A stretch of 35,790 nt of DNA from a virus. The notes below the pieces were generated by a model. That model searched no databases, was not told the DNA's origin, and worked only from the letters and a program-made list of their open reading frames with translations. Below are positions 22,620-35,302 of this stretch, one piece after another. The stretch lies in the IMG/VR virus record IMGVR_UViG_3300030328_002396, positions 4,791-40,580 of that record. One strand, given 5' to 3'. How positions within the stretch are numbered: position 1 is the stretch's first letter; every line of letters begins with the position of its first letter. Made by a program: the position numbers and the translations under genes.

Positions 22620-23039
22620 ATGGATAACAGTATAAAATTTCGTAGTTTTAACAACAAAGACTACGACAAGGTCTCAAAGTGGTGGGATTGGTGGTGGGGA
22701 GAACAAGGGGCTATAGAAAGAGAATTTTTACCACATAACGATTATTGTTTTATAATAAGCAAAGGTGAGGTGTGTATAGCATCAGGTTTTTTGTTTGTAG
22801 ATAAACACGCGCCAGTTGCTTATTTAACTTACATCGTTTCAAATCCTGAATACAGGGAAAAAGATAGGAGAAGTATTATAGAACAATTAATACTTAATAT
22901 AGAAGAACACGCAAAACTACAAGGTATAAAGTTTATATTCACAGTGTGCGGCAATGTTCACATGGAAAATATACATAAAAAATTAAACTGGACAATAGAC
23001 AAGTCGGCTCCAGCTTACGAAACTTACAAATACATATAA
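22620..23039 (+). CDS. GNAT-like acetyltransferase domain protein
   Basis: The 139-residue product follows the GNAT layout: a Trp-rich N-terminal helix (KVSKWWDWWWGEQGA), a beta core (DYCFIISKGEVCIASGFLFV, then APVAYLTYIVSNPEYR), a helix after the acetyl-CoA loop (REKDRRSIIEQLILNIEEHA), a strand (GIKFIFTVCGNVHMENIHKK) and a C-terminal tail (LNWTIDKSAPAYETYKYI). GNAT enzymes transfer acetyl groups from acetyl-CoA to amines. The usual R/Q-x-x-G-x-G/A loop here reads YREKDRRS with no glycine, so binding may be altered. The substrate is unknown; neighbours are all virion genes. The start is preceded by 49 noncoding A/T-rich bases. Confidence 0.68.
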   Translation: MDNSIKFRSFNNKDYDKVSKWWDWWWGEQGAIEREFLPHNDYCFIISKGEVCIASGFLFVDKHAPVAYLTYIVSNPEYREKDRRSIIEQLILNIEEHAKLQGIKFIFTVCGNVHMENIHKKLNWTIDKSAPAYETYKYI

Positions 23040-23040
23040 A

Positions 23041-23949
23041 ATGGGAGGAAAAGCACGTAGAAGAATAGCAAGAGAAGCCAACGAAATGGCTGCTCAACAA
23101 CTTAAGGTTTATAAAGAGGAACAAAAAATACAAAGAGGTATTTATGAAAAACAAAAAGCTGAATACAAAAGTTTTCAGTTTAAAAATCCTTATGCAGGAT
23201 TACAAAATTACTACGAAGGCATGGAAAATGTTTTTGAAGATTTAACTGTTGATACTCAAGCGGCAGAATTCCAAATGGAAAGAGGTGAGCAACAAAGAGC
23301 AAATATTATGGAGGCTTTCCGAGCTTCTGCTGGTGGTTCTGGTATAGCTGGTTTAGCGCAATCGCTAGCCAATCAAGGTATTTTACAAGCTAGTCAAGTC
23401 TCTGCTAGCATAGCTCAACAAGAAAGACAAAATCAAATTATGATGGCTAAAGGAGCTAGTCAAATCCAAACAATGGAAAGACAAGGTTTGTCTGCTGCAG
23501 ATATGGCTATGAGAGGTGGTGAGGCTATGGTTCAGCAGGCAGAAATGTCTAGACAGTCAACGCTTCTTGGCGTAGAAATGAGCGGTATGGCTGGTGCCAA
23601 TGCTGGCGTTCAATCTGCTTACGCAAACCAGATGAGTGCAAAAGCTTTAGATGCTCAAATGTTAGGAGCTCAAATGGGTATGTGGGGTAATATAATAAGT
23701 GGTGTTGCTCAAGGTGCTGGTACTGGATATGCTTCTGATAGAAGATTAAAGAAAAATATTAACTTAATAGGTAAATCACCTAAAGGTTTAAATATATATT
23801 CTTTTGAATACATAAACAAAGATTATGGATCTGGAGTTTACCAAGGCGTAATGTCTGATGAGATGCCAAGAGGAGCTGTTTCTATTGATTTTGACGGCTA
23901 CGATATGGTTGATTATAGTATGATTGACGTAGACTTTAAACAAATATAA
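23041..23949 (+). CDS. Ala/Gln-rich likely ejection protein with C-terminal S74-type motif
   Basis: The 302-residue product has a basic helical head (KARRRIAREANEMAAQQLKV), a segment YKSFQFKNPYAGLQNYYEGM with FEDLTVDTQAAEFQMERG, and a long Gly/Ala/Gln/Met-rich helical region (about 95-225), reminiscent of small internal virion proteins such as T7 gp14. At 232 it changes to SDRRLKKNINLIG, the Ser-Asp-x-Arg-Leu-Lys signature of peptidase S74 intramolecular chaperones, with S232 and K237 in the dyad positions, then GVYQGVMSDEMPRGAV and VDYSMIDVDFK. Only 71 residues follow the serine, shorter than the usual S74 domain. It begins the 302-690-3084 gene series. Confidence 0.68.
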   Translation: MGGKARRRIAREANEMAAQQLKVYKEEQKIQRGIYEKQKAEYKSFQFKNPYAGLQNYYEGMENVFEDLTVDTQAAEFQMERGEQQRANIMEAFRASAGGSGIAGLAQSLANQGILQASQVSASIAQQERQNQIMMAKGASQIQTMERQGLSAADMAMRGGEAMVQQAEMSRQSTLLGVEMSGMAGANAGVQSAYANQMSAKALDAQMLGAQMGMWGNIISGVAQGAGTGYASDRRLKKNINLIGKSPKGLNIYSFEYINKDYGSGVYQGVMSDEMPRGAVSIDFDGYDMVDYSMIDVDFKQI

Positions 23950-23951
23950 TT

Positions 23952-26024
23952 ATGGCAAAAAAACAAAATCCGTTAGGTTCTTTAGTGCCTGTAACAGACA
24001 CAAATTTAGTTAACCAAGCATATAGAATGGCTATGGCCAACGTGCCTAAAGACTTAAGTGGTATACACAACCGTATAGCCGCTTCTTACGCCGCTGGAGC
24101 AGACGCTCTTGGCAAAGGTATTGCTGAGGTTTTTAAAACAGCTGGTCAAATATATGCTAAAGTAAAAGAAGAGTCAGATCAAGAGGAAACTGACACAAAA
24201 GCATCAAGAGAATTTAAAAATGGTAAAATTGCTGTAGATACAGATTACTCGAAAGTTCAAGGTTATGAACCTGACGGAGACGTATACTATAGATTCGACG
24301 ATGAAGCAACAACTGATGTAGATGAAGGCGACGTCATACTTCGTAGTGAAATAGAAACTCCGATAACATACAATAGCGTTGATTATAATGGTAATAGCGA
24401 AACTATTTCAGTAATGAACTTTGATGAACATCAAAAACATTTAAAAGCTTTAAAGAAAAAAGTTAGATCTAATAAAAATTTAAGTTTTAATGAAAAAAGG
24501 CGTAAATTAAAAAAATTAAGTGACAGGGAAGATATGGCTAGAGAATCTTCTATATTATTTTTAAAAACAGAGGCTGAAATTGATGATTTAATTAAAAACG
24601 GAGACTTATCAGAAAATGCAACTAATGTTCAGAAAATTCAGTTTTTAAGAGCTATAAAAAATAATGGAAAATTAGTTGATGATGGAAACGGCAACAAAAC
24701 AAGAGCTTTAATGGGTTTTAACCAAGAGGGTGAAATTGTATTTAGCTATGTTGACGAAGAAGGAAGACCTATAAAAGATAAATCTGGAAACCCTATAACT
24801 GTCCGTCCGGGCGAAGCTAAGTCTTTAGTTACACCGAAAGATTCGGAAATGAGGAATAAAATAAATACTATTCAAGACGAGTATATAAAACTTGGCTCTG
24901 AAGGTAATCAATTTGACGACGCATACAACAGTAGGCAGGGTACTGCAATTACTGCTGCAATATCAAGTAAGAAAAAATTTAATGATTTTTTAGGGTTTAA
25001 ACCGGAAGGATTTGGCCAAAACTTTGAACAAGCTGTTAATGGTATTGGAGATGAAAATACTGAAGGAATAGAACTAAGTAATCTACCTGAACAATTATTT
25101 AATTCTCTCCCTAAAGACTTTGTGCCAGATAACGATAATAGTGGAGGTGTAAGTGCTGGTGATTTCCAAACAACGGAAAACTATAAAAAACTTAGAGACG
25201 CTATTTTAAACACAGAAGATAAAAATTTTGATTTATCAAGATCAGCTTTGGTTGCTAAAGAATTTTTAATTAGTAAGTTTAAAGTTGACAGCGCGGGTGC
25301 TCTAAAAATATATACAGATGATCCTGCAAATGCTGCTGCTATTGCTAAGAAGAAAAGAGAGCAACAAGTAATACCACAAGTAGTATTAACCCAAGAACAA
25401 CAAGAACTACAAGGTATAATTGCAAACTTAGAAAAAACAGAGGGTGGTAGAAAAGCTTTAAATCAAATAGGTACGTTTACAGAAATTATACAAGCTGGAG
25501 GAGAAGGTCAACAAATTATTGATCTAAACTTAGATTCTGGTGGAAATATTATAAAAAATATTAAAGTAGATTCTAAAGCAGGAAAAATTACTACAACTAA
25601 TGTAGATAAGGGTACTGGTAACACAGTTACGAAAGAAGTAACACTTAGAGAGGCTGTGACTCTTATCTCAAATAATTCTGGTCTTTCTGTCAACAAAGTT
25701 ATTGATTTAATGGGATTAAAAGATGGAAGAAATATAGTAACAACAATGTTTGAGAAAAGTGGGGCTGATAAAGGCTATGGTTTTATTGGAGCTCCAGAAG
25801 GAGGTAGAGGCGAAGATGCAGCCCTTGTGTTATTCCAAGATAAATATAAGGATATAAAAGACCTAAACGTGAGTGTTAAAAGTGATGGAAAAGACAAGTT
25901 ATTCTTCAACTATCCTGGTGCTAGAGCTTTTGAATACGACCCTATGTTAACAGGTGACAAATATAACACGCAGTTGAACGGTCTTAAAGCTTGGTTTCAA
26001 ACATATCAAATTAAATCAAAATAA
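23952..26024 (+). CDS. Likely internal virion (ejection/cargo) protein
   Basis: The 690-residue product has a mixed Ala-rich helical head (QAYRMAMANVPKDLSGIHNR, then IAASYAAGADALGKGIAEVF), a basic helical stretch (HQKHLKALKKKVRSNKNLSF), a disordered-looking acidic centre, and a mixed C-terminal domain (TTTNVDKGTGNTVTKEVTLR, AFEYDPMLTGDKYNTQLNGL). There is no signal peptide, membrane helix or catalytic motif. It sits between a gp14-like protein and a giant protein, matching the place and relative size of T7 gp15 in the gp14-gp15-gp16 ejection set. This comparison is by order and size only, not sequence. It starts two bases after the upstream stop. Confidence 0.6.
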   Translation: MAKKQNPLGSLVPVTDTNLVNQAYRMAMANVPKDLSGIHNRIAASYAAGADALGKGIAEVFKTAGQIYAKVKEESDQEETDTKASREFKNGKIAVDTDYSKVQGYEPDGDVYYRFDDEATTDVDEGDVILRSEIETPITYNSVDYNGNSETISVMNFDEHQKHLKALKKKVRSNKNLSFNEKRRKLKKLSDREDMARESSILFLKTEAEIDDLIKNGDLSENATNVQKIQFLRAIKNNGKLVDDGNGNKTRALMGFNQEGEIVFSYVDEEGRPIKDKSGNPITVRPGEAKSLVTPKDSEMRNKINTIQDEYIKLGSEGNQFDDAYNSRQGTAITAAISSKKKFNDFLGFKPEGFGQNFEQAVNGIGDENTEGIELSNLPEQLFNSLPKDFVPDNDNSGGVSAGDFQTTENYKKLRDAILNTEDKNFDLSRSALVAKEFLISKFKVDSAGALKIYTDDPANAAAIAKKKREQQVIPQVVLTQEQQELQGIIANLEKTEGGRKALNQIGTFTEIIQAGGEGQQIIDLNLDSGGNIIKNIKVDSKAGKITTTNVDKGTGNTVTKEVTLREAVTLISNNSGLSVNKVIDLMGLKDGRNIVTTMFEKSGADKGYGFIGAPEGGRGEDAALVLFQDKYKDIKDLNVSVKSDGKDKLFFNYPGARAFEYDPMLTGDKYNTQLNGLKAWFQTYQIKSK

Positions 26025-26047: not shown

Positions 26048-29000
26048 ATGGAAGAGCTAGAAAATTTAGTATTTGACATGTATCAAGCTGGTAAAACTGA
26101 TGAAGAGGTTAGTCAGTTTGTTGCCGAATATAAAGCGAAAAAAGAGGGAAACCAAGACGGCTCTACATCGAATGTGGACGCAACAGTAGAGCCGAATACC
26201 AATATGGCGTCCGCTTCGGGAGGTACTTCTTCGGTTGTATTAAATCCTAATTTTAAACATATAACAGCTGCTGAGCTTAATGATCATGATTTTCACACGG
26301 TTGAAGGAGATATAGCTCCAAAATTAGAAAAACTGTATGGGGAAGATTTTTACATAGATACCGATTATGATGGTTTTCTTTTTGGCGTTGATATGCAGGA
26401 TAAAGTTAGAATTCGAAACAAGAAAAACGGTAAGACAAAAGAATTTCAATTAAACCAATACGTGTCAAGAAACGACGGTATGGCGCTACTTGAAAAAGAT
26501 ATAAAAGAATTTACAGAATCTTCAGCTAGTGCAGATCAAAATGATAAATCAGAAGATTATAAAAGAAGAAAAAATATTTATAATACAACTGGCTCTCTTA
26601 GCGTTGATGATAGTATAAACTATATTGATTTAACATATACAGATTCAGATAAAATATCAAATACGGCTTTTATAAGTAGACAAAAATTTAACCAAAGAGA
26701 TGGTAAGTTTTCAAAACTTACCCCATTTGACAATCTTTTTAGTGGACAATATAATCCAGACAGAACTGAAGCAAATGTTGATAAGATAGAAGAAATAATG
26801 TCTGATGTCTCTAGACACATGCAGTATGAATTAAAACAACTACCTACGTCTGCTTTTGGTAAAGATTTTACTATTCATCCAGACCAAAGACCGAGATTGT
26901 TGAAAAAAGTATTTGATAATATAAATAAAACAGGCGACTACTTATTACCTTGGGATCAATTTGAAAAATTAACAGGAGGGACAAGTGATTCTTTTTTAAA
27001 TAATGAAATTAAAAAAGTAATGAGCAAACCTGTTAATAATCAACATCTCAAAAAGACTAATGACGAGACGTTAGATCCCGTTGTTAAAGAGAAAATATTA
27101 GATAAGTGGTATAAGGAATTACCACCGCAATGGAAAGACAAAGCTGATTTAGTTGAAGAAAGAACTCCTCTAGAAACCTCTAGAAAAGAAATAGAATTCA
27201 AACTTCAAAATGAAACAGATCCATTAGAAGCAATGAAACTTCGAAATAGCTTATTTGACATTGACGCACAGATTGATGATATAAATAAACTTATAAAAAA
27301 TTTACCAGAAAAACATGACGATCTCTGGAGTTGGGAGAAAGAAGACCTAGTTAGTATGTGGGCAGCAAAAGGAATGTCTGAACCTAGAGCACAATTAATG
27401 GCAGAAGCTTTTGATCAAGCTAGAAACGGTGGTGCTGAAGACAATATGGAAAGGATTAAAAGAGAAAATCCTATGTTGACAGATAGAGAGGCAATGCTTA
27501 TGTACTTAGATGAACTAATGTTAAATGAGCAAACCATATTGAAACAAGGCTCGCAAACAATGATCAATATTGATCTATCAAAATTAGGAACTGATAAAAA
27601 GAAAATAGATCAAAACTTCATAAATAAAATCAAACAATCTGGGAATTATGCTGAAACTTTAGACGGTGAGATTGGTGAAATTGAAATTTCTGTAGCTGAT
27701 TTAATGTCTTTAGGTTTCGATGCTAGAGATTTTAAGGGTTGGTTTGATGAGTGGCAAACTAGTGGAGCTATAAACATGGAGGATCTACAGTTGTTGGAAA
27801 GTTACGAAGAAGCTAGAGATTATAACGCTGGATCAATGAGAGCTGTTTATGAACTTACACATTTAGATAGAAATCCTAAGTCTATAGCATCAGGAACCGG
27901 TAGTGTTGAAGGTGTTTTATTGAACACTCTTTCTGCTGTATCTACTTTTTCTGAAAGTGGTGGAAAAACAATATTGAAAGAGTGGTTCGATATGAGCGAG
28001 AGAGAGGCTGGAAAATCAATCGCACAAGGTCGTACAGAAGGTCCAAGTAGAGAATACACAAATAGAGCTCTATTAGATAATATGAATATGGCCGCGGCTG
28101 ATTTTAACGAGGAAAATAGAGAGGCTATCGAAAAAGGAGACATGTCAGCTTTAGTTTGGTCTGAAGAACAGTTGAAATCAATAGAAAGAACTTTTTCTGA
28201 TGGAGTTGCAGAGGGTGTTGGGCAATTTGTCCCAACATTAATAGAGCTAGCCGCTATAACACTAGCTTCCGACGGGATGTTAACGGCGACCGGTGGCGCT
28301 GCTTATTTAGCTCGACTAAAAAAAGCCACTGACGTTTGGAGTAAAATGAAACTTCATACATCTATGCTGGCTTTAGAGGAACTTAAGATGCAAGTTGCTG
28401 GATTCAAAGCTGGTTCTGGTGCTTCTTTTTATATTGGTGGTGCTCTAACACCTTGGTTTAGACCTGGCGCTTTACCAATGGGTGTAGGTACAACTCTTAA
28501 AGGATTAGATCCTCTATGGAATAAAACATTTAAAGCTGGTATTGTTGGTGCTGGTTCTGGAGAGTTTGCTCAAATAACAGAATTAGGATGGGAAACTTTA
28601 ATGGGAGAAGCGGATTGGTCAACAGAAATGAATAATTTATTTGGTGACTGGGATGAAGTTGAACAAAGAATGATGACAAATGCTTTTGTGTTTGGTATTG
28701 CGCATCAAATGGGTAAAGGAAGAATTAAGACAGGACTTCGTTCTAGATATGAAATTGGTGATTTTCACATAACAGCTGGGGCTAAGTTTAGAGTGAAAAA
28801 GAGAATTAATGATAAATTAGAAAAATTAAAATACACAGAGAGTGATAGAAATGAAGTTAATAAACTTGAAAAACAATTAGAAAAGTTAGAAAAAGATTTT
28901 AAATCTAAAAAAATTGAAAAAAACGAGTACGATCTACAAAAAGAACTTATTAAATTAAATATAAAAAGTTATAGAAAAAGAGAGATTTATGAGCTCAAAG

Positions 29001-32000
29001 GAAAAGAAAAAGAAGTGTTTGAGGCTTACGGAAGATCTTGGATAGACCTTACAAATTTAGCAAATGCTCAAGCTCATAGTAGAAAATTAGATCCATTCGG
29101 TGGTTATAGTGAAAGTGCATACAAGAAACTCGATAAAGCAACACAAGATAAGATATCCAGCAGTTTTGAGGCTAATTACCAGAGAATTGTAATTGATCCT
29201 ATAAATACTTTGTTTGGTAGTGCTAATAAAAATTTCAAACCGTTAACAGTTCAGTTTGTAAATTCAAAACAAGCTAAGACTTTATTTGAAGACTTAAATA
29301 ATGTTGCTGAGTATGACAAAAAGAATAACTCTATAATGTTTAATAAAGAAAAGTTTTCAATAGGCACGTCTAATCACGAGTTAGTACACATGGCCTTAAG
29401 ACAAGTTTTTAATAGTTATGGAGAACGTATGCAAATCCGCTTTGAAAAAAGAATAGACAATGTTTTTGAAAAAGCATTTGGTAAAAAACTAAATGATTGG
29501 CTCGCTGAAAATGTTCAAGAATTTTATACCAAAGAAAAAGGTGTTCAAGTAGGTAGAGAAGAGTTTTTAACTAATTTAACAGAGGTTATAACTAATCCAG
29601 ATATTTATTACACACAAGTAAATACTAATTTTATAAAAAATGCAAGTCAAGAAATTAAGAGTTTCTTAGAAGAAATACATCCAGCTTTAGGTAAATATTT
29701 TAAACCTAAAACAGCTAAGGGTTTTGTAGAATTTTTAGGTAGACTTGGAGACTCTGGTAGAACTGGTAGAAAAACAGCTGGAAAATTATTAAATTTATCA
29801 AAGTTAGAAGACATAAGCTTTTTAGGTATAGAATATAGAGGAACTGTTGGTAAGAGCGAGGGTAAAATGGCTGGTAGAGATCTTGCTAGAGAAAAAGAAG
29901 TTCTTAAAAATGAGAATATATCTTTGGGTAAAAATAAACCTAAAGAAACAGGGAAGGTGTTTCCAAAAACAATCAAAGTCGGTGGTAAAGAAAAACCACA
30001 TCCAAAAGCCGGACAGAAAATGACTTGGAGAGATGTTATGACTGAAAATGTTAAGGAAATAAAAGATATTAATAAACTTATAGAAAGAAACGAATTAACA
30101 AAAGAGTTAATTGATAAATATGGGCCTTTAAACGAAAAGGTTAAAGAAGGAAATGCTCCAGAATCTACAAGGCTGCGTCACTCCATGATATTTGAAAAAC
30201 TAAGAGAGAATAACATGTATATCTTAGATCAGTATATTCTCGATCCAATTTATGGTTATAAAGACGTAAAGGGATCAAATTTAACTTTTGAATCGTTTTC
30301 TAAATATGTTAAAAACACCGAGTTTCAAAAACTTGTTGAAACCTATTTAAAAAGAGATGTTAAATTTAAAGACGTTCCATTTGGGGCTTACCTAAGAGAT
30401 AATATAAAGTTTAGAACTGGTAACATACTAAAAGCATTAAAAGTAAATTTAGACCAACAGTTAAAATTTGTATCAAGAGACGCCCCTGGTTATAGTGAAA
30501 AAGAAATAGGTTATGATGGGGGAATGAATTTTGGCGGAGGTAGAACTGAAATTAAAACCGAAAATAATTTGCTAGATATAATTGCAAATTTACCTCTTCA
30601 GCAAAACCATATTACTACAATTGAAAATAAAATAATAAATCAAGAAGGTGTTTTTAAGAATTTTCAATACGATGTTACTAGAAAAAAGGACGGGCAATAC
30701 ATAACGGAAACTTTAAATTTAGATTATTTTGGATTAGAAGATTTAGCGCCTAGTTTAACTAAAAAAATGTTTGGTAAATCTACTCAAGACAAAGCTAATT
30801 TTATAGCAAATGAATGGAAATATCTCCTCTCTTTAAACGCAAAGAACCTAACAGAAACAACTGGTACTAAAACAGGCGTGCCAAATGTTTTAATGACTAG
30901 AAAAGTTCCTAAAGGAACTGAAGGAGCGTACGAAACGACAAATGCAAAGGGTGAAAAAGTATACATGAAAGATGTTTTTTACGAAAAAACTGGTATAGAT
31001 GTTGCATTTAAAGATACTGGCGCTAGAACTGGTACCGAATTACAAAAAGTAAAAGACCTAAATAAAAAGCAATATTTACAAGAATATGGTATTGTAGATA
31101 ATAGGACTAAAGAGGTTATTGAAAGAGCTAGAGAGATACACAATAAAAAATCTGCAGGCGAAAAAATAACAGCGGAAGAAAAAACTTTTATGAAGGAAAA
31201 CGGTAATGTAGATATTTCTAATATGAAGTTAGATAGAAACATTATAGCATCTTTAATTCCAGCAACAGAAGGTGTGACTGGTAGAGCTGTGACAAATAGA
31301 ATTACTGAAAATTTCTTAAGAAAACATCCTCAGTATATTGAGCATATAGCCAGAAAAGAAAGTTTAGAAACAATAATAAATGAATTTACCTCTGGTAAAA
31401 GTGATAAAATAGCTGGTAAGGATTTAGCGAAGATGTATAAGCAGCATGGTTTAAAAACAGAGTATCAAGAAATGGTTGCAGACGTGGCTAGATTCATGAG
31501 AGATGAAGTGAAGTTTAAAAAGCAATCTCCAGAAAGATACAATGCTGTTAAAGATTATATAGAATTACAAAGTAAATACGAAGCAATAAGAGGTAAAGAA
31601 CAAGAAATAAGATTTACTAAAGAGACTAAAAAAATCAACGCAACATGGGCGCGAGGTGGTAGCTGGCAAGTTTCTAGTAGCAAGTTTAAAAATAACAAAG
31701 AATTACTAAAAGAATGGGAAACCTTATCTTTTGAACTAGCTGACATAATAAATTTACCACCTGGATCTACAAAAGGTAATTTAAAGATGATGATTGATTT
31801 GTTTACTGGTCATTATGGTGTTTTAAGAGGTGTTGAAAAATGGGATTTAGTTGATAGTCCTTGGAAAGTTGGGTTAAGAGAAAGACTTACTAATGGTAAA
31901 GAATCTCCTTTGTCAAAAAGCCTTCAAAAAAGACTTAGAGAATTTCCTTGGGACAAATTAAAGGGATCATATGCTTCTCAATTCTTAACTGGATACAAAG

Positions 32001-35000
32001 ACGTTTTAGCGACTGATGGTCTAAAAACTCAGAAAGAAAAAACTAGAAAGTTTATGAATTCTGAAAATGGAAAACTACAAGTTGAACTATACGATCTTTG
32101 GAATAGTGTTTTGCAAGAGTGGGTAAACTTAAGCCCAAGAGATGTAAAATCTAAAAAAGATATAAATTCAGATTATAATAGAAAAATGAATTTTATAGCT
32201 AGAATGAAAAAACATAATTCTAGTATAGGTACCACAGGAGAGCGTGTTTTAGCACCAGCTGGTTATTATTACTTACCTGGCAAGGTTGATATGGGTACAA
32301 TTAAGTTTGAGCATTTAAAATCTAGCAGCGAACAATCATACGAATCTTTATTAATGATTTCTGAAGGCGCTTGGAAAACTAAAGGGAAAAAATCTTTAGA
32401 AAAATATAAAGGAATATGGGGTCTTCTTAGAGATTTTAAAACAATAGACAAAGCAACAGGAGCAACAAATAGTTCTAATATACATAGACTTGCTGAAAGT
32501 TTAGAGCTAGCAAAAAGTATATGGAGTGTTGAAAGTAATTTGAAAAGAAGTTTATACCAAGATATAGTTAAAGAGGTGGGTCAAAAAACGGTAGACCAAA
32601 TAATGAAGACAGATAAAAAGCTAACTAAGAAAAATAGAGAAATGCTGCAAGATCTTGGTTTATTAGCGTCTAAAAATTTAAGTGGAAAAGTTGCTCGAGA
32701 ACATATTAGTGTTGTAGATAAAGCCTTAGCTGAGGGTAGAACGTTTAAAAAGAAAAATAGAGGTATGTCTACGTTTGATTTTGACGAAACCGTAGGTATT
32801 AGTGAAAACTTTATAGTTGCCACTAAAGGAAAACAAAAAAGAAAAATAGCATCTGCTGAATGGCCTTTTGTTGGTGATAAATTATTGTCTGAAGGTTGGA
32901 AAATGGACTTTACTGATTTTAATAAGGTGACTAAAGGTAAACCAGGACCGTTGATGCAAAAAATGAAAAATCAAATTAAAAAATTTGGTCCTGATAATGT
33001 TTATATTTTAACAGCTAGAGCGCCAGAAAGCGCTTCAGCAATTCATGCTTGGCTAAAGAGTCAAGGTGTTGAAATACCTTTAGAAAACATTACTGGCTTG
33101 GGTAATAGCACTGGAGAAGCAAAAGCAATGTGGATGTTAAAAAAGTTTTCAGAAGGATATAATGACATGTATTTTGTTGACGACGCTTTACCTAACGTAA
33201 AGGCGGTTAAAAGCGTTTTAGAACAATTAGATATAAAGTCTAACGTACAACAGGCTAGAATTTTAGCTGGTAAAAACTTTGATTCAAAAATTAATGAGAT
33301 GATGGAGTACTCTTTAAATATAGGTGCTGATAAAGTTTTTTCAAAAGCAGAGGCTAAATTTAGAGGAAAAGATAAAAAAAGAAGAAAGTTTTTTATGACA
33401 GACTCTGCCTCTGATTTAGAATTGCTTATAGAGCCTTTGTATGGTAAAGGTAAAAAAGGTATTGAAAATCAAAAGTGGTTTAAAGACAATTATCTTAAAA
33501 CTTGGGAGAGAGGTATAAACGATTTAAATACAGCTAGGCAATCTATAGTGACTGATTATATGTCACTGCGTAAGGAAAATAAAGGTGTTGTTAAAAAGTT
33601 AGACAAAGTTATAGAAGGAACTAGTTTTACAAACGATGCTGCTATGAGGGTTTATATATGGAATAAAAAAGGATTAGAAGTTCCTGGATTAGCTGAAAAA
33701 TCAAGAAAAAAATTAATTAAACATATAGAGAGTAACCCAGAACTTCTTGTTTTTGCAGAAAGAGCTGCTGAAATAACTAAATTAGAAACAGGTTTTAAAC
33801 CACCAAAAGAAACTTGGTGGGCTGAAAGTATAGCTAGTGAAATCAGCGAAATAGGGCAAGGTGTTAGTAGACAAAAGTATTTGAAAGATTGGATGGAAAT
33901 GTCAAAAGAAATATTTTCTGAAAAAAACCTAAACAAAATGGAGGCTGAGTTAGGTTCTTTATGGAGAGAGTCTATGGAAGATATGCTTTATAGAATGGAA
34001 ACTGGCACAACTAGAAAAAAAGATTTAGGTAGAATTGGTAACACTATAATGGATTATCTAAACGGATCTACTGGTGCGATTATGAGTTTAAACACAAGAT
34101 CAGCTACGTTACAATTAATATCTACGGTGAATTTTATAAACCATGCTGAAAACAATCCGTTTGCCGCAGCAAGAGCTTTTGCTAATCAAAAACAATATTG
34201 GAAAGACTTTATGTATATTATGAATTCTGATATGTTAAAGCAGAGACGTGATGGTTTACAGATAAATGTTTCTGAAGCTGAACTAGCAGCTGCGGTGCAC
34301 AACAAAAATAACAAAGCAAGAAGAGCTATAGCATATATATTAAAACAAGGTTATATACCTACAAAAATTGCGGATAGTTTTGCTATTGCCTCTGGTGGTG
34401 CTACGTATTATCGTAATAGAATTAAAATGTATCAAAAACAAGGCTTGGATTTAAAACAAGCCGAGGCTAAAGCTTGGGTTGATTTTCAAGCTATAGCAGA
34501 AAGAACTCAACAGTCTGCAAGACCAGATCTTTTATCTAAACAGCAAGTTTCTTTCGAGGGTAGGTTAGTTCTCCCGTTTTCAAACACTCCAATGCAAATG
34601 AACAGAATAATGATGAAAGAGGTTCTTGATTTGTCTAAAGGTAGATATGAAGGTTTTTATGGAGAAAATTCGTTTACTAATAAAATGAGTAAAGTAGCTT
34701 ATTATGGCGGTATACAATCAGCTATATTTGCCGGGCTACAAACTGGTTTATTTGCACTTTTAGCTTTTGCGGAAGACACTGATGATAATACGGAGACAAT
34801 AGCTAATAAAAAATTACAAGCAATGAACACTATGTCTGACTCTTTTTTAAGAGGTATGGGTGTTCCAGGTACCGTGGTTTCAGGTTTGAAAAATGGTATT
34901 TTGAAATTTTACGAACAAGATAAGAAAGATTGGACTGCTGATTACAGTGAGGTAGGAGAAGCGTTGTTAAATATATCTCCTACAGTAGGATCAAAATTTA

Positions 35001-35302
35001 GTTTGATGGACGCTGGTGGTAATACTTATAAATACAATAAAAAAGAAATTAAAACTAGAGGACTTAGCATTGAGAACACTAAAGCAGCAGAAGCTGCTTC
35101 ACAATACACACAAGCCATCACAAACGTTCCTGTTAATAGAGTTTTTAAAAAAATAGAAAACATACAAGGGGCTTTAGACCAACGAAACGAAGCTTGGCAA
35201 AGAGTGATGTTGATGATGGGTTGGAGTAAGTGGGATCTTGGAGCAGCTAATGCAAAAAATAAAAAACCTAAAAAAACTAAAAAAATATTTACTGGAATAT
35301 GA
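26048..35302 (+). CDS. Giant virion protein with metallopeptidase and HAD-phosphatase motifs
   Basis: The 3084-residue product starts with an acidic helical region (1-170). Hydrophobic, membrane-like segments lie near 719-750 (FVPTLIELAAITLASDG) and around 800-850. A long charged coiled coil covers about 918-995. A zincin motif HELVH lies at 1110-1114 (SNHELVHMALRQVF), with a possible third ligand in a later Glu (GREEFLTNLTEV). A region near 1443-1480 reads VPFGAYLRDNIKFRTGNI. A HAD-like domain follows at about 2238-2400: D2244 and D2246 in TFDFDETV, T2322 in YILTAR, K2359, and D2378-D2379 in YFVDDALP. A conserved-looking C-terminus contains LVLPFSNTPMQMNRI, a hydrophobic stretch, and NEAWQRVMLMMGWSKWDLG. 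Position and size fit a T7 gp16-type ejected protein. It is likely polyvalent. Confidence 0.72.
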   Translation: MEELENLVFDMYQAGKTDEEVSQFVAEYKAKKEGNQDGSTSNVDATVEPNTNMASASGGTSSVVLNPNFKHITAAELNDHDFHTVEGDIAPKLEKLYGEDFYIDTDYDGFLFGVDMQDKVRIRNKKNGKTKEFQLNQYVSRNDGMALLEKDIKEFTESSASADQNDKSEDYKRRKNIYNTTGSLSVDDSINYIDLTYTDSDKISNTAFISRQKFNQRDGKFSKLTPFDNLFSGQYNPDRTEANVDKIEEIMSDVSRHMQYELKQLPTSAFGKDFTIHPDQRPRLLKKVFDNINKTGDYLLPWDQFEKLTGGTSDSFLNNEIKKVMSKPVNNQHLKKTNDETLDPVVKEKILDKWYKELPPQWKDKADLVEERTPLETSRKEIEFKLQNETDPLEAMKLRNSLFDIDAQIDDINKLIKNLPEKHDDLWSWEKEDLVSMWAAKGMSEPRAQLMAEAFDQARNGGAEDNMERIKRENPMLTDREAMLMYLDELMLNEQTILKQGSQTMINIDLSKLGTDKKKIDQNFINKIKQSGNYAETLDGEIGEIEISVADLMSLGFDARDFKGWFDEWQTSGAINMEDLQLLESYEEARDYNAGSMRAVYELTHLDRNPKSIASGTGSVEGVLLNTLSAVSTFSESGGKTILKEWFDMSEREAGKSIAQGRTEGPSREYTNRALLDNMNMAAADFNEENREAIEKGDMSALVWSEEQLKSIERTFSDGVAEGVGQFVPTLIELAAITLASDGMLTATGGAAYLARLKKATDVWSKMKLHTSMLALEELKMQVAGFKAGSGASFYIGGALTPWFRPGALPMGVGTTLKGLDPLWNKTFKAGIVGAGSGEFAQITELGWETLMGEADWSTEMNNLFGDWDEVEQRMMTNAFVFGIAHQMGKGRIKTGLRSRYEIGDFHITAGAKFRVKKRINDKLEKLKYTESDRNEVNKLEKQLEKLEKDFKSKKIEKNEYDLQKELIKLNIKSYRKREIYELKGKEKEVFEAYGRSWIDLTNLANAQAHSRKLDPFGGYSESAYKKLDKATQDKISSSFEANYQRIVIDPINTLFGSANKNFKPLTVQFVNSKQAKTLFEDLNNVAEYDKKNNSIMFNKEKFSIGTSNHELVHMALRQVFNSYGERMQIRFEKRIDNVFEKAFGKKLNDWLAENVQEFYTKEKGVQVGREEFLTNLTEVITNPDIYYTQVNTNFIKNASQEIKSFLEEIHPALGKYFKPKTAKGFVEFLGRLGDSGRTGRKTAGKLLNLSKLEDISFLGIEYRGTVGKSEGKMAGRDLAREKEVLKNENISLGKNKPKETGKVFPKTIKVGGKEKPHPKAGQKMTWRDVMTENVKEIKDINKLIERNELTKELIDKYGPLNEKVKEGNAPESTRLRHSMIFEKLRENNMYILDQYILDPIYGYKDVKGSNLTFESFSKYVKNTEFQKLVETYLKRDVKFKDVPFGAYLRDNIKFRTGNILKALKVNLDQQLKFVSRDAPGYSEKEIGYDGGMNFGGGRTEIKTENNLLDIIANLPLQQNHITTIENKIINQEGVFKNFQYDVTRKKDGQYITETLNLDYFGLEDLAPSLTKKMFGKSTQDKANFIANEWKYLLSLNAKNLTETTGTKTGVPNVLMTRKVPKGTEGAYETTNAKGEKVYMKDVFYEKTGIDVAFKDTGARTGTELQKVKDLNKKQYLQEYGIVDNRTKEVIERAREIHNKKSAGEKITAEEKTFMKENGNVDISNMKLDRNIIASLIPATEGVTGRAVTNRITENFLRKHPQYIEHIARKESLETIINEFTSGKSDKIAGKDLAKMYKQHGLKTEYQEMVADVARFMRDEVKFKKQSPERYNAVKDYIELQSKYEAIRGKEQEIRFTKETKKINATWARGGSWQVSSSKFKNNKELLKEWETLSFELADIINLPPGSTKGNLKMMIDLFTGHYGVLRGVEKWDLVDSPWKVGLRERLTNGKESPLSKSLQKRLREFPWDKLKGSYASQFLTGYKDVLATDGLKTQKEKTRKFMNSENGKLQVELYDLWNSVLQEWVNLSPRDVKSKKDINSDYNRKMNFIARMKKHNSSIGTTGERVLAPAGYYYLPGKVDMGTIKFEHLKSSSEQSYESLLMISEGAWKTKGKKSLEKYKGIWGLLRDFKTIDKATGATNSSNIHRLAESLELAKSIWSVESNLKRSLYQDIVKEVGQKTVDQIMKTDKKLTKKNREMLQDLGLLASKNLSGKVAREHISVVDKALAEGRTFKKKNRGMSTFDFDETVGISENFIVATKGKQKRKIASAEWPFVGDKLLSEGWKMDFTDFNKVTKGKPGPLMQKMKNQIKKFGPDNVYILTARAPESASAIHAWLKSQGVEIPLENITGLGNSTGEAKAMWMLKKFSEGYNDMYFVDDALPNVKAVKSVLEQLDIKSNVQQARILAGKNFDSKINEMMEYSLNIGADKVFSKAEAKFRGKDKKRRKFFMTDSASDLELLIEPLYGKGKKGIENQKWFKDNYLKTWERGINDLNTARQSIVTDYMSLRKENKGVVKKLDKVIEGTSFTNDAAMRVYIWNKKGLEVPGLAEKSRKKLIKHIESNPELLVFAERAAEITKLETGFKPPKETWWAESIASEISEIGQGVSRQKYLKDWMEMSKEIFSEKNLNKMEAELGSLWRESMEDMLYRMETGTTRKKDLGRIGNTIMDYLNGSTGAIMSLNTRSATLQLISTVNFINHAENNPFAAARAFANQKQYWKDFMYIMNSDMLKQRRDGLQINVSEAELAAAVHNKNNKARRAIAYILKQGYIPTKIADSFAIASGGATYYRNRIKMYQKQGLDLKQAEAKAWVDFQAIAERTQQSARPDLLSKQQVSFEGRLVLPFSNTPMQMNRIMMKEVLDLSKGRYEGFYGENSFTNKMSKVAYYGGIQSAIFAGLQTGLFALLAFAEDTDDNTETIANKKLQAMNTMSDSFLRGMGVPGTVVSGLKNGILKFYEQDKKDWTADYSEVGEALLNISPTVGSKFSLMDAGGNTYKYNKKEIKTRGLSIENTKAAEAASQYTQAITNVPVNRVFKKIENIQGALDQRNEAWQRVMLMMGWSKWDLGAANAKNKKPKKTKKIFTGI

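What the first reader, a model, noticed from the sequence alone, without database searches (positions are those of the whole stretch)
23734..23949. Minimal S74-type self-cleavage motif on an ejection-type protein
S74 intramolecular chaperones normally end trimeric tail spikes and fibres. Here SDRRLKKNI (Ser 232, Lys 237) ends an Ala/Gln/Met-rich helical protein that looks internal, and only 71 residues follow. If it cleaves, the mature protein would be about 231 residues. The long terminal helices of normal S74 domains are missing, so it may act without trimerisation or be a fixed, uncleaved cap.
Basis: partly seen in the sequence, partly recalled or inferred. Interest (0 to 1): 0.6.

Follow-up and report, generated by a model that had tools for sequence, protein, structure and literature searches.

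The report
Short self-cutting tail on phage ejection protein
A marine phage's DNA-ejection protein ends in a cut-down version of a self-cutting protein module known mainly from phage tail fibres; its two catalytic residues never vary across more than 200 related modules, so it probably cuts itself off, but nobody appears to have tested this.

Summary
ORF 23041-23949 (302 aa) ends in a genuine S74 (intramolecular chaperone, ICA) module starting at Ser232, with Lys237 at the catalytic spacing and 71 residues in all. It folds on its own in prediction (pLDDT 91.7), matches S74/ICA proteins by structure, and lacks the C-terminal coiled-coil helix that drives trimerisation in characterised members. 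The body is a long-helix ejection protein of the T7 gp14 / P22 gp7 slot. The arrangement is not unique: it is annotated in cultured podoviruses (Brucella, Sulfitobacter PhiGT1, Rhizobium, Sinorhizobium PhiM5, where the protein was found in virions). Two results go beyond annotation. (1) Ser, Asp and Lys are invariant in 215 of 215 modules, including 108 of 108 found without using the dyad, although the module is an optional cassette: a relative 95% identical to a carrier simply lacks it and stops where cleavage would fall. (2) In 68 distinct proteins the module lies inside a fusion, some with a peptidoglycan-hydrolase domain after it, and 17 carry two modules. Best reading: self-cleavage before Ser232 trims a 33-kDa precursor to 24.9 kDa. 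Cleavage itself is untested. Interest 0.5.

The parts
23041..23949 (+). Ejection (internal virion) protein with S74-type C-terminal module, 302 aa
   Evidence: ORF; phrog_6121 'virion structural protein' 1e-12 and, for the C-terminal part, phrog_4287 'DNA ejection protein' 1e-6; syntenic with ejection/internal virion proteins of annotated phages
23041..23733 (+). Helical body, residues 1-231 (24.9 kDa); predicted mature protein if cleaved
   Evidence: AlphaFold2 model with helices 3-44, 72-96, 102-219; composition and mass; natural module-less relatives L002-L005 end here
23734..23946 (+). Minimal S74/ICA module, residues 232-302 (8.1 kDa), no terminal coiled-coil helix
   Evidence: Pfam; profile against solved S74 chains; model pLDDT 91.7, pTM 0.75; structure match to ICA proteins
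23734..23736 (+). Ser232, predicted nucleophile; predicted cut between Ala231 and Ser232 (not shown)
   Evidence: aligned with MyRF Ser587 / endoNF Ser911 by motif (PMC8326128); invariant 215/215, both TCN and AGY codons among relatives
23749..23751 (+). Lys237, predicted general base (MyRF Lys592 / endoNF Lys916)
   Evidence: five residues after Ser; invariant 215/215
22620..23039 (+). GNAT acetyltransferase gene directly upstream, in the slot of P22 gp14
   Evidence: Pfam Acetyltransf_1 6e-5; same gene order in PhiGT1, pCB2047-C, RHph_I3_18, ct7L0027
23952..26024 (+). 690-aa protein in the slot of the next ejection protein (no family match)
   Evidence: position directly after the S74 protein as in annotated phages; no significant Pfam or PHROG hit

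Best explanation
The 302-aa protein is a precursor of an ejection protein (T7 gp14 / P22 gp7 slot). Its last 71 residues are a reduced S74/ICA module that keeps the cutting fold and the Ser232-Lys237 dyad but not the trimerising terminal helix. Most likely the module folds, the protein assembles through its long helices, the linker is held in the active site, and Lys237-activated Ser232 attacks the Ala231-Ser232 bond, releasing an 8.1-kDa cap and leaving a 231-residue mature protein. SHOWN here: module identity, absence of the helix, strict conservation of the dyad, optional presence. INFERRED: cleavage, its timing at assembly, and that oligomerisation of the body replaces the missing coiled coil.
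For: (1) Ser, Asp, Lys invariant in 215 of 215 modules from 198 distinct proteins; 108 of 108 among loci fetched with patterns lacking the dyad and located with a profile lacking it. In 68 non-redundant modules (mean identity 50%, minimum 24%) only S1, D2, K6 and one Gly are invariant; residues 3, 4, 5, 7 and 8 between and after them vary. (2) Ser is encoded by TCN (77) and AGY (24) in 101 distinct modules, so the residue, not one codon, is kept. (3) Relative L005 is 95% identical to carrier L001 over the body gene and 94% over the next kilobase, yet lacks the cassette precisely; it ends where cleavage would fall, so a protein of the cleaved length is a natural form. (4) In 68 distinct fusion proteins the module sits between the ejection-protein half and a long second half; of those scanned, some carry a peptidoglycan-hydrolase domain there (SLT, phage lysozyme, Hydrolase_2), and 17 have two modules; in related phages ejection protein and hydrolase are separate genes. 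A self-cutter there would restore separate proteins. (5) Linker 214-235 is predicted at low confidence, as a flexible threaded substrate would be.
Against: In MyRF cleavage occurs only when ICA domains are trimers, and the missing C-terminal helix is the main trimerising element (PMC8326128). No trimeric beta-stalk precedes the module here. No mass-spectrometry or biochemical data on cleavage of any such ejection protein were found; PhiM5's homologue was detected in virions but not as cleaved or intact. Fused relatives might simply stay fused. Only monomers could be modelled.
Confidence: 0.6

Rival explanations
1. Uncleaved docking or oligomerisation domain: the module keeps the S74 fold but stays attached, for example to fix the ejection protein to the portal, tail hub or its partner ejection proteins.
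For: The helix required for trimerisation, and hence for cleavage in MyRF, is missing (PMC8326128); the module folds as a compact autonomous domain; it is optional, as an accessory docking piece would be.
Against: Does not explain why Ser and Lys, with Asp and one Gly, are the only invariant positions while neighbouring residues vary.
Confidence: 0.25
2. Helper for others: the module is released or acts in trans as a small folding chaperone for the neighbouring ejection or tail proteins, rather than to mature its own carrier.
For: The same short module sits on unrelated bodies, including fibre-like and collagen-like ones, so its function may not depend on the carrier.
Against: Close relatives with the same neighbouring gene do without it; no direct evidence of action in trans.
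Confidence: 0.08
3. Mobile C-terminal cassette spread by recombination, with little function in the ejection protein.
For: Presence changes at least 10 (supported branches) to 20 times on the body tree, and the L001/L005 pair shows a clean plug-in/plug-out.
Against: A passenger would lose its dyad; 215 of 215 keep it, at module identities down to 24%.
Confidence: 0.05
4. Not an S74 module at all: chance resemblance of a 9-residue motif.
For: Window protein is below Pfam's own cut-off; Foldseek and VIA-align against PDB listed no S74 chain.
Against: 50 of 56 aligned modules hit only Peptidase_S74; the module profile finds a solved long-tail-fibre chain, 6f45, at 5e-4; BFVD structure matches at probability 1.00 to ICA proteins.
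Confidence: 0.01

Closest known systems
Peptidase_S74 / ICA domains of endosialidase (endoNF), T5 L-shaped fibre pb1, phage GA-1 neck appendage gp12, and MyRF
   Same: Ser-Lys dyad with five-residue spacing at the domain's first residue; same family by profile and by structure match to S74-annotated proteins
   Different: Those end trimeric beta-structured stalks and carry a C-terminal coiled-coil helix (MyRF N670-K705; T5 pb1 133 residues in all, PMC4690869 abstract); here 71 residues, no terminal helix, helical ejection body
S74-tailed internal virion proteins of cultured podoviruses: Sulfitobacter PhiGT1 gp17, Brucella phage ORF23, Rhizobium RHph_I3_18, Pseudoalteromonas H6/1 gp17, Sinorhizobium PhiM5 gp27
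   Same: Same gene slot (after a GNAT or head-assembly gene in several, before further ejection proteins), same short module where the sequence was read
   Different: Only distant sequence similarity (about 30-45%); annotated by domain name, function of the module not examined in what I could read
T7 gp14 and P22 gp7 ejection proteins
   Same: Slot and helical, Ala/Gln/Gly-rich body; PHROG 'DNA ejection protein' for the C-terminal part
   Different: To my knowledge they carry no S74 module; their sequences were not compared here
Ejection fusion proteins of other phages (for example L013 'internal virion protein D', L226, L263)
   Same: Body family phrog_6121 followed by the same helix-less module
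   Different: Module internal, second half sometimes with a hydrolase domain, sometimes two modules; the marine-type body profile does not detect their N-terminal part directly

Membership tests
Peptidase_S74 / ICA | Ser-x4-Lys catalytic dyad at the domain start | tested here: met
   S232, K237; invariant in 215/215 modules
Peptidase_S74 / ICA | Sequence profile of the family | tested here: met
   Window alone sub-threshold (0.0023), 50/56 aligned modules match only this family, fused relatives 6e-21
Peptidase_S74 / ICA | ICA fold | tested here: met
   Model matches predicted ICA/endosialidase-chaperone proteins, TM 0.7-0.9, prob 1.00; the PDB search did not list solved S74 chains, which is inconclusive
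Peptidase_S74 / ICA | C-terminal trimerising coiled-coil helix | tested here: not met
   Chain ends at the last strand, no terminal helix in the model; 62-85 residues from Ser to the end in most ejection-type proteins against 104-115 in fibre-type L316, L317, L319. This is a hallmark of characterised members, not part of the Pfam definition
Peptidase_S74 / ICA | Autocleavage N-terminal to Ser | not testable with these tools
   No biochemistry or virion peptide data available
Podovirus ejection (internal virion) protein | Slot after neck/tail-tube genes and a GNAT/gp14 gene, before larger ejection proteins | tested here: met
Podovirus ejection (internal virion) protein | Present inside the virion and ejected | tested here: inconclusive
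   Distant homologue PhiM5 gp27 annotated as detected in the particle proteome; nothing for this phage

The most novel reading that the evidence does not exclude
Helix-less S74 modules are self-cutting punctuation of phage ejection proteins: they trim the gp14-like protein in phages like this one, and in other lineages, singly or in pairs inside a fused polypeptide, cut it into the ejection protein and a second protein that can be a peptidoglycan hydrolase. Activation would come from the ejection protein's own oligomer rather than from an S74 coiled-coil trimer.
Probability: 0.4. Interest if true: 0.75.

Novelty: new variant of a known kind. Interest (0 to 1): 0.5.

Why it matters
S74 domains are understood as trimer-only chaperones that end fibres and spikes. 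A widespread, helix-less form with an untouched catalytic dyad on ejection proteins, and inside ejection fusion proteins, would mean that virion-internal proteins are matured by self-cleavage and that the S74 reaction may be separable from its coiled-coil trimer. That is directly testable with cultured phages such as Sulfitobacter PhiGT1 or Sinorhizobium PhiM5.

Tried and rejected
Foldseek and VIA-align of the module against PDB listed only kinase lobes and other small beta folds, no S74 chain; taken as inconclusive for a 71-residue piece. Foldseek of the whole protein gave only unspecific helical matches. The Pfam M19, Cuticle_2 and Ku70 hits of the whole protein are sub-threshold noise. The profile of fused C-terminal halves did not match the separate downstream genes of annotated phages, so equivalence of the halves rests on gene order and domain content, not on sequence. 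Literature searches for S74 with ejection, injection or internal virion proteins found no paper treating the combination; PMC4422536 and PMC9144972 list such genes in tables and PMC10783043 mentions the domain in a phage cluster. The supplementary mass-spectrometry table of the PhiGT1 paper could not be opened. A trimer could not be modelled.

Full report
WHAT IS THERE. The window is 35.8 kb of a 40.6-kb virus record with a podovirus-like virion module: terminase, portal, capsid, further virion genes, a GNAT acetyltransferase at 22620-23039, the 302-aa protein at 23041-23949, a 690-aa protein and a 3084-aa protein. The 302-aa protein is Ala/Gln/Gly/Met-rich and is predicted as long helices to residue 219, a low-confidence linker 214-235 and a compact beta-rich module from 235 to the end. 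The module begins with SDRRLKKNI at codon 23734 and has 71 residues.

IT IS AN S74 MODULE. Pfam finds Peptidase_S74 in the window protein only below its cut-off, but the family of aligned modules settles it: 50 of 56 match that family and no other, and relatives reach 6e-21. A profile of the modules finds solved S74 chains: a long-tail-fibre distal subunit, 6f45, at 5e-4, the neck appendage 3gud at 0.02 and MyRF at 0.16. Modelled alone the module has pLDDT 91.7 and pTM 0.75, and the model matches viral proteins named intramolecular chaperone auto-processing domain or endosialidase chaperone at TM 0.7-0.9. The PDB structure search was uninformative.

WHAT IS MISSING. In MyRF the dyad is S587/K592 (endoNF S911/K916), cleavage needs trimers, and the triple coiled coil N670-K705 is the main trimerising force (PMC8326128). 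Here the chain stops at the last strand. Most other ejection-type modules likewise have 62-85 residues from Ser to the end, while fibre-type S74 proteins fetched in the same searches have about 93-115 with a helical end.

CARRIER. The body belongs to phrog_6121, with phrog_4287 'DNA ejection protein' matching the C-terminal part. The same slot and the same short module occur in cultured phages: PhiGT1 gp17, whose GenBank note names the S74 domain and which lies between a GNAT and a muramidase-bearing internal virion protein; pCB2047-C; RHph_I3_18; H6/1 gp17 'ejection protein'; Vibrio 199E37-1; PAE2; PhiM5 gp27, detected in the particle proteome; and Brucella phage ORF23 'structural protein (peptidase_S74)' (PMC4422536; sequence not read). 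The arrangement is therefore known at the level of annotation.

CONSERVATION OF THE DYAD. Scans with the dyad removed from the query, with the body and with a fused relative whose search patterns lacked the dyad gave loci unbiased for Ser and Lys. A profile without the first nine columns then located 108 modules in them: 108 of 108 have Ser and Lys in place, and over all loci 215 of 215 do. In 68 non-redundant modules, mean identity 50% and minimum 24%, only S1, D2, K6 and one Gly are invariant. Ser uses both codon boxes.

OPTIONAL CASSETTE. Among 83 distinct bodies found by body-directed searches, 10 carry the module (one cut by a contig end and counted as 'without' by the script) and 73 do not. 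On a tree of 139 bodies the trait changes at least 10 times by supported branches, 20 by parsimony; the tree is a quick one with long branches, and rows were gathered partly by the module. L001 and L005 are 95% identical over the body gene and 94% over the next kilobase, yet one has the roughly 200-base cassette and the other ends directly. The module-less form has about the length that cleavage would give.

FUSIONS AND TANDEM MODULES. The annotated protein L013 'internal virion protein D' has body, module at 277 and a transglycosylase domain at 601-694 in one chain. A scan found many more: one search lists 69 proteins with an internal module; one of them (L318) looks fibre-like, leaving 68. 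Of seven fused proteins scanned by Pfam three showed a hydrolase domain (SLT, phage lysozyme or Hydrolase_2) and a fourth matched an endolysin profile in PHROGs. Seventeen have two modules, both with the dyad. The N-terminal halves match phrog_6121, though not the marine-type body profile. These proteins are predictions from assembled contigs, but their number makes assembly error an unlikely cause.

MECHANISM. The pattern (dyad frozen, rest drifting, module dispensable, cleaved-length alleles in nature, modules placed between functional halves) is what a self-cutting cap would leave. I put self-cleavage at 0.6. The main objection is the missing trimeriser; the body's own oligomer may replace it, which is inference. 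The main rival is an uncleaved docking domain (0.25).

NOVELTY. The window feature is one more member of an annotated but, as far as I could search, unexamined arrangement; the helix-less form, its frozen dyad and its internal tandem use make it a new variant of the S74 kind rather than a new kind.

Noticed in passing
window 22620-23039: GNAT acetyltransferase directly upstream of the ejection protein, a pairing repeated in PhiGT1, pCB2047-C, RHph_I3_18 and ct7L0027, in the slot of P22 gp14. A GNAT-like ORF lies within 1.5 kb upstream in 39 of 183 module-bearing and 20 of 79 module-less loci. It might modify an ejection protein.
   Followed up: partly
L226, L227, L228, L246, L247, L263, L301 and others: Two S74 modules inside one ejection fusion protein, with their starts about 220-350 residues apart.
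   Followed up: partly
L051:1736-4216 and L062:1721-4216: 826-831-aa proteins in which a Hint/intein-like C-terminal block (weak Pfam match, E 0.1) ends shortly before the S74 Ser: possibly two self-processing elements side by side.
   Followed up: no
L027, L077, L080, L130: The same short module on fibre-like and collagen-like bodies, so the helix-less form is not limited to ejection proteins.
   Followed up: partly
L307:2280-4195 and L308:2355-4195: Two neighbouring genes that each end in an S74 module (Sideroxyarcus and Gallionellaceae bins); phage JC1 likewise lists S74 in genes 57 and 59 (PMC9144972).
   Followed up: no
window 26048-35302: 3084-aa protein after the ejection genes, without a significant Pfam match.
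   Followed up: no
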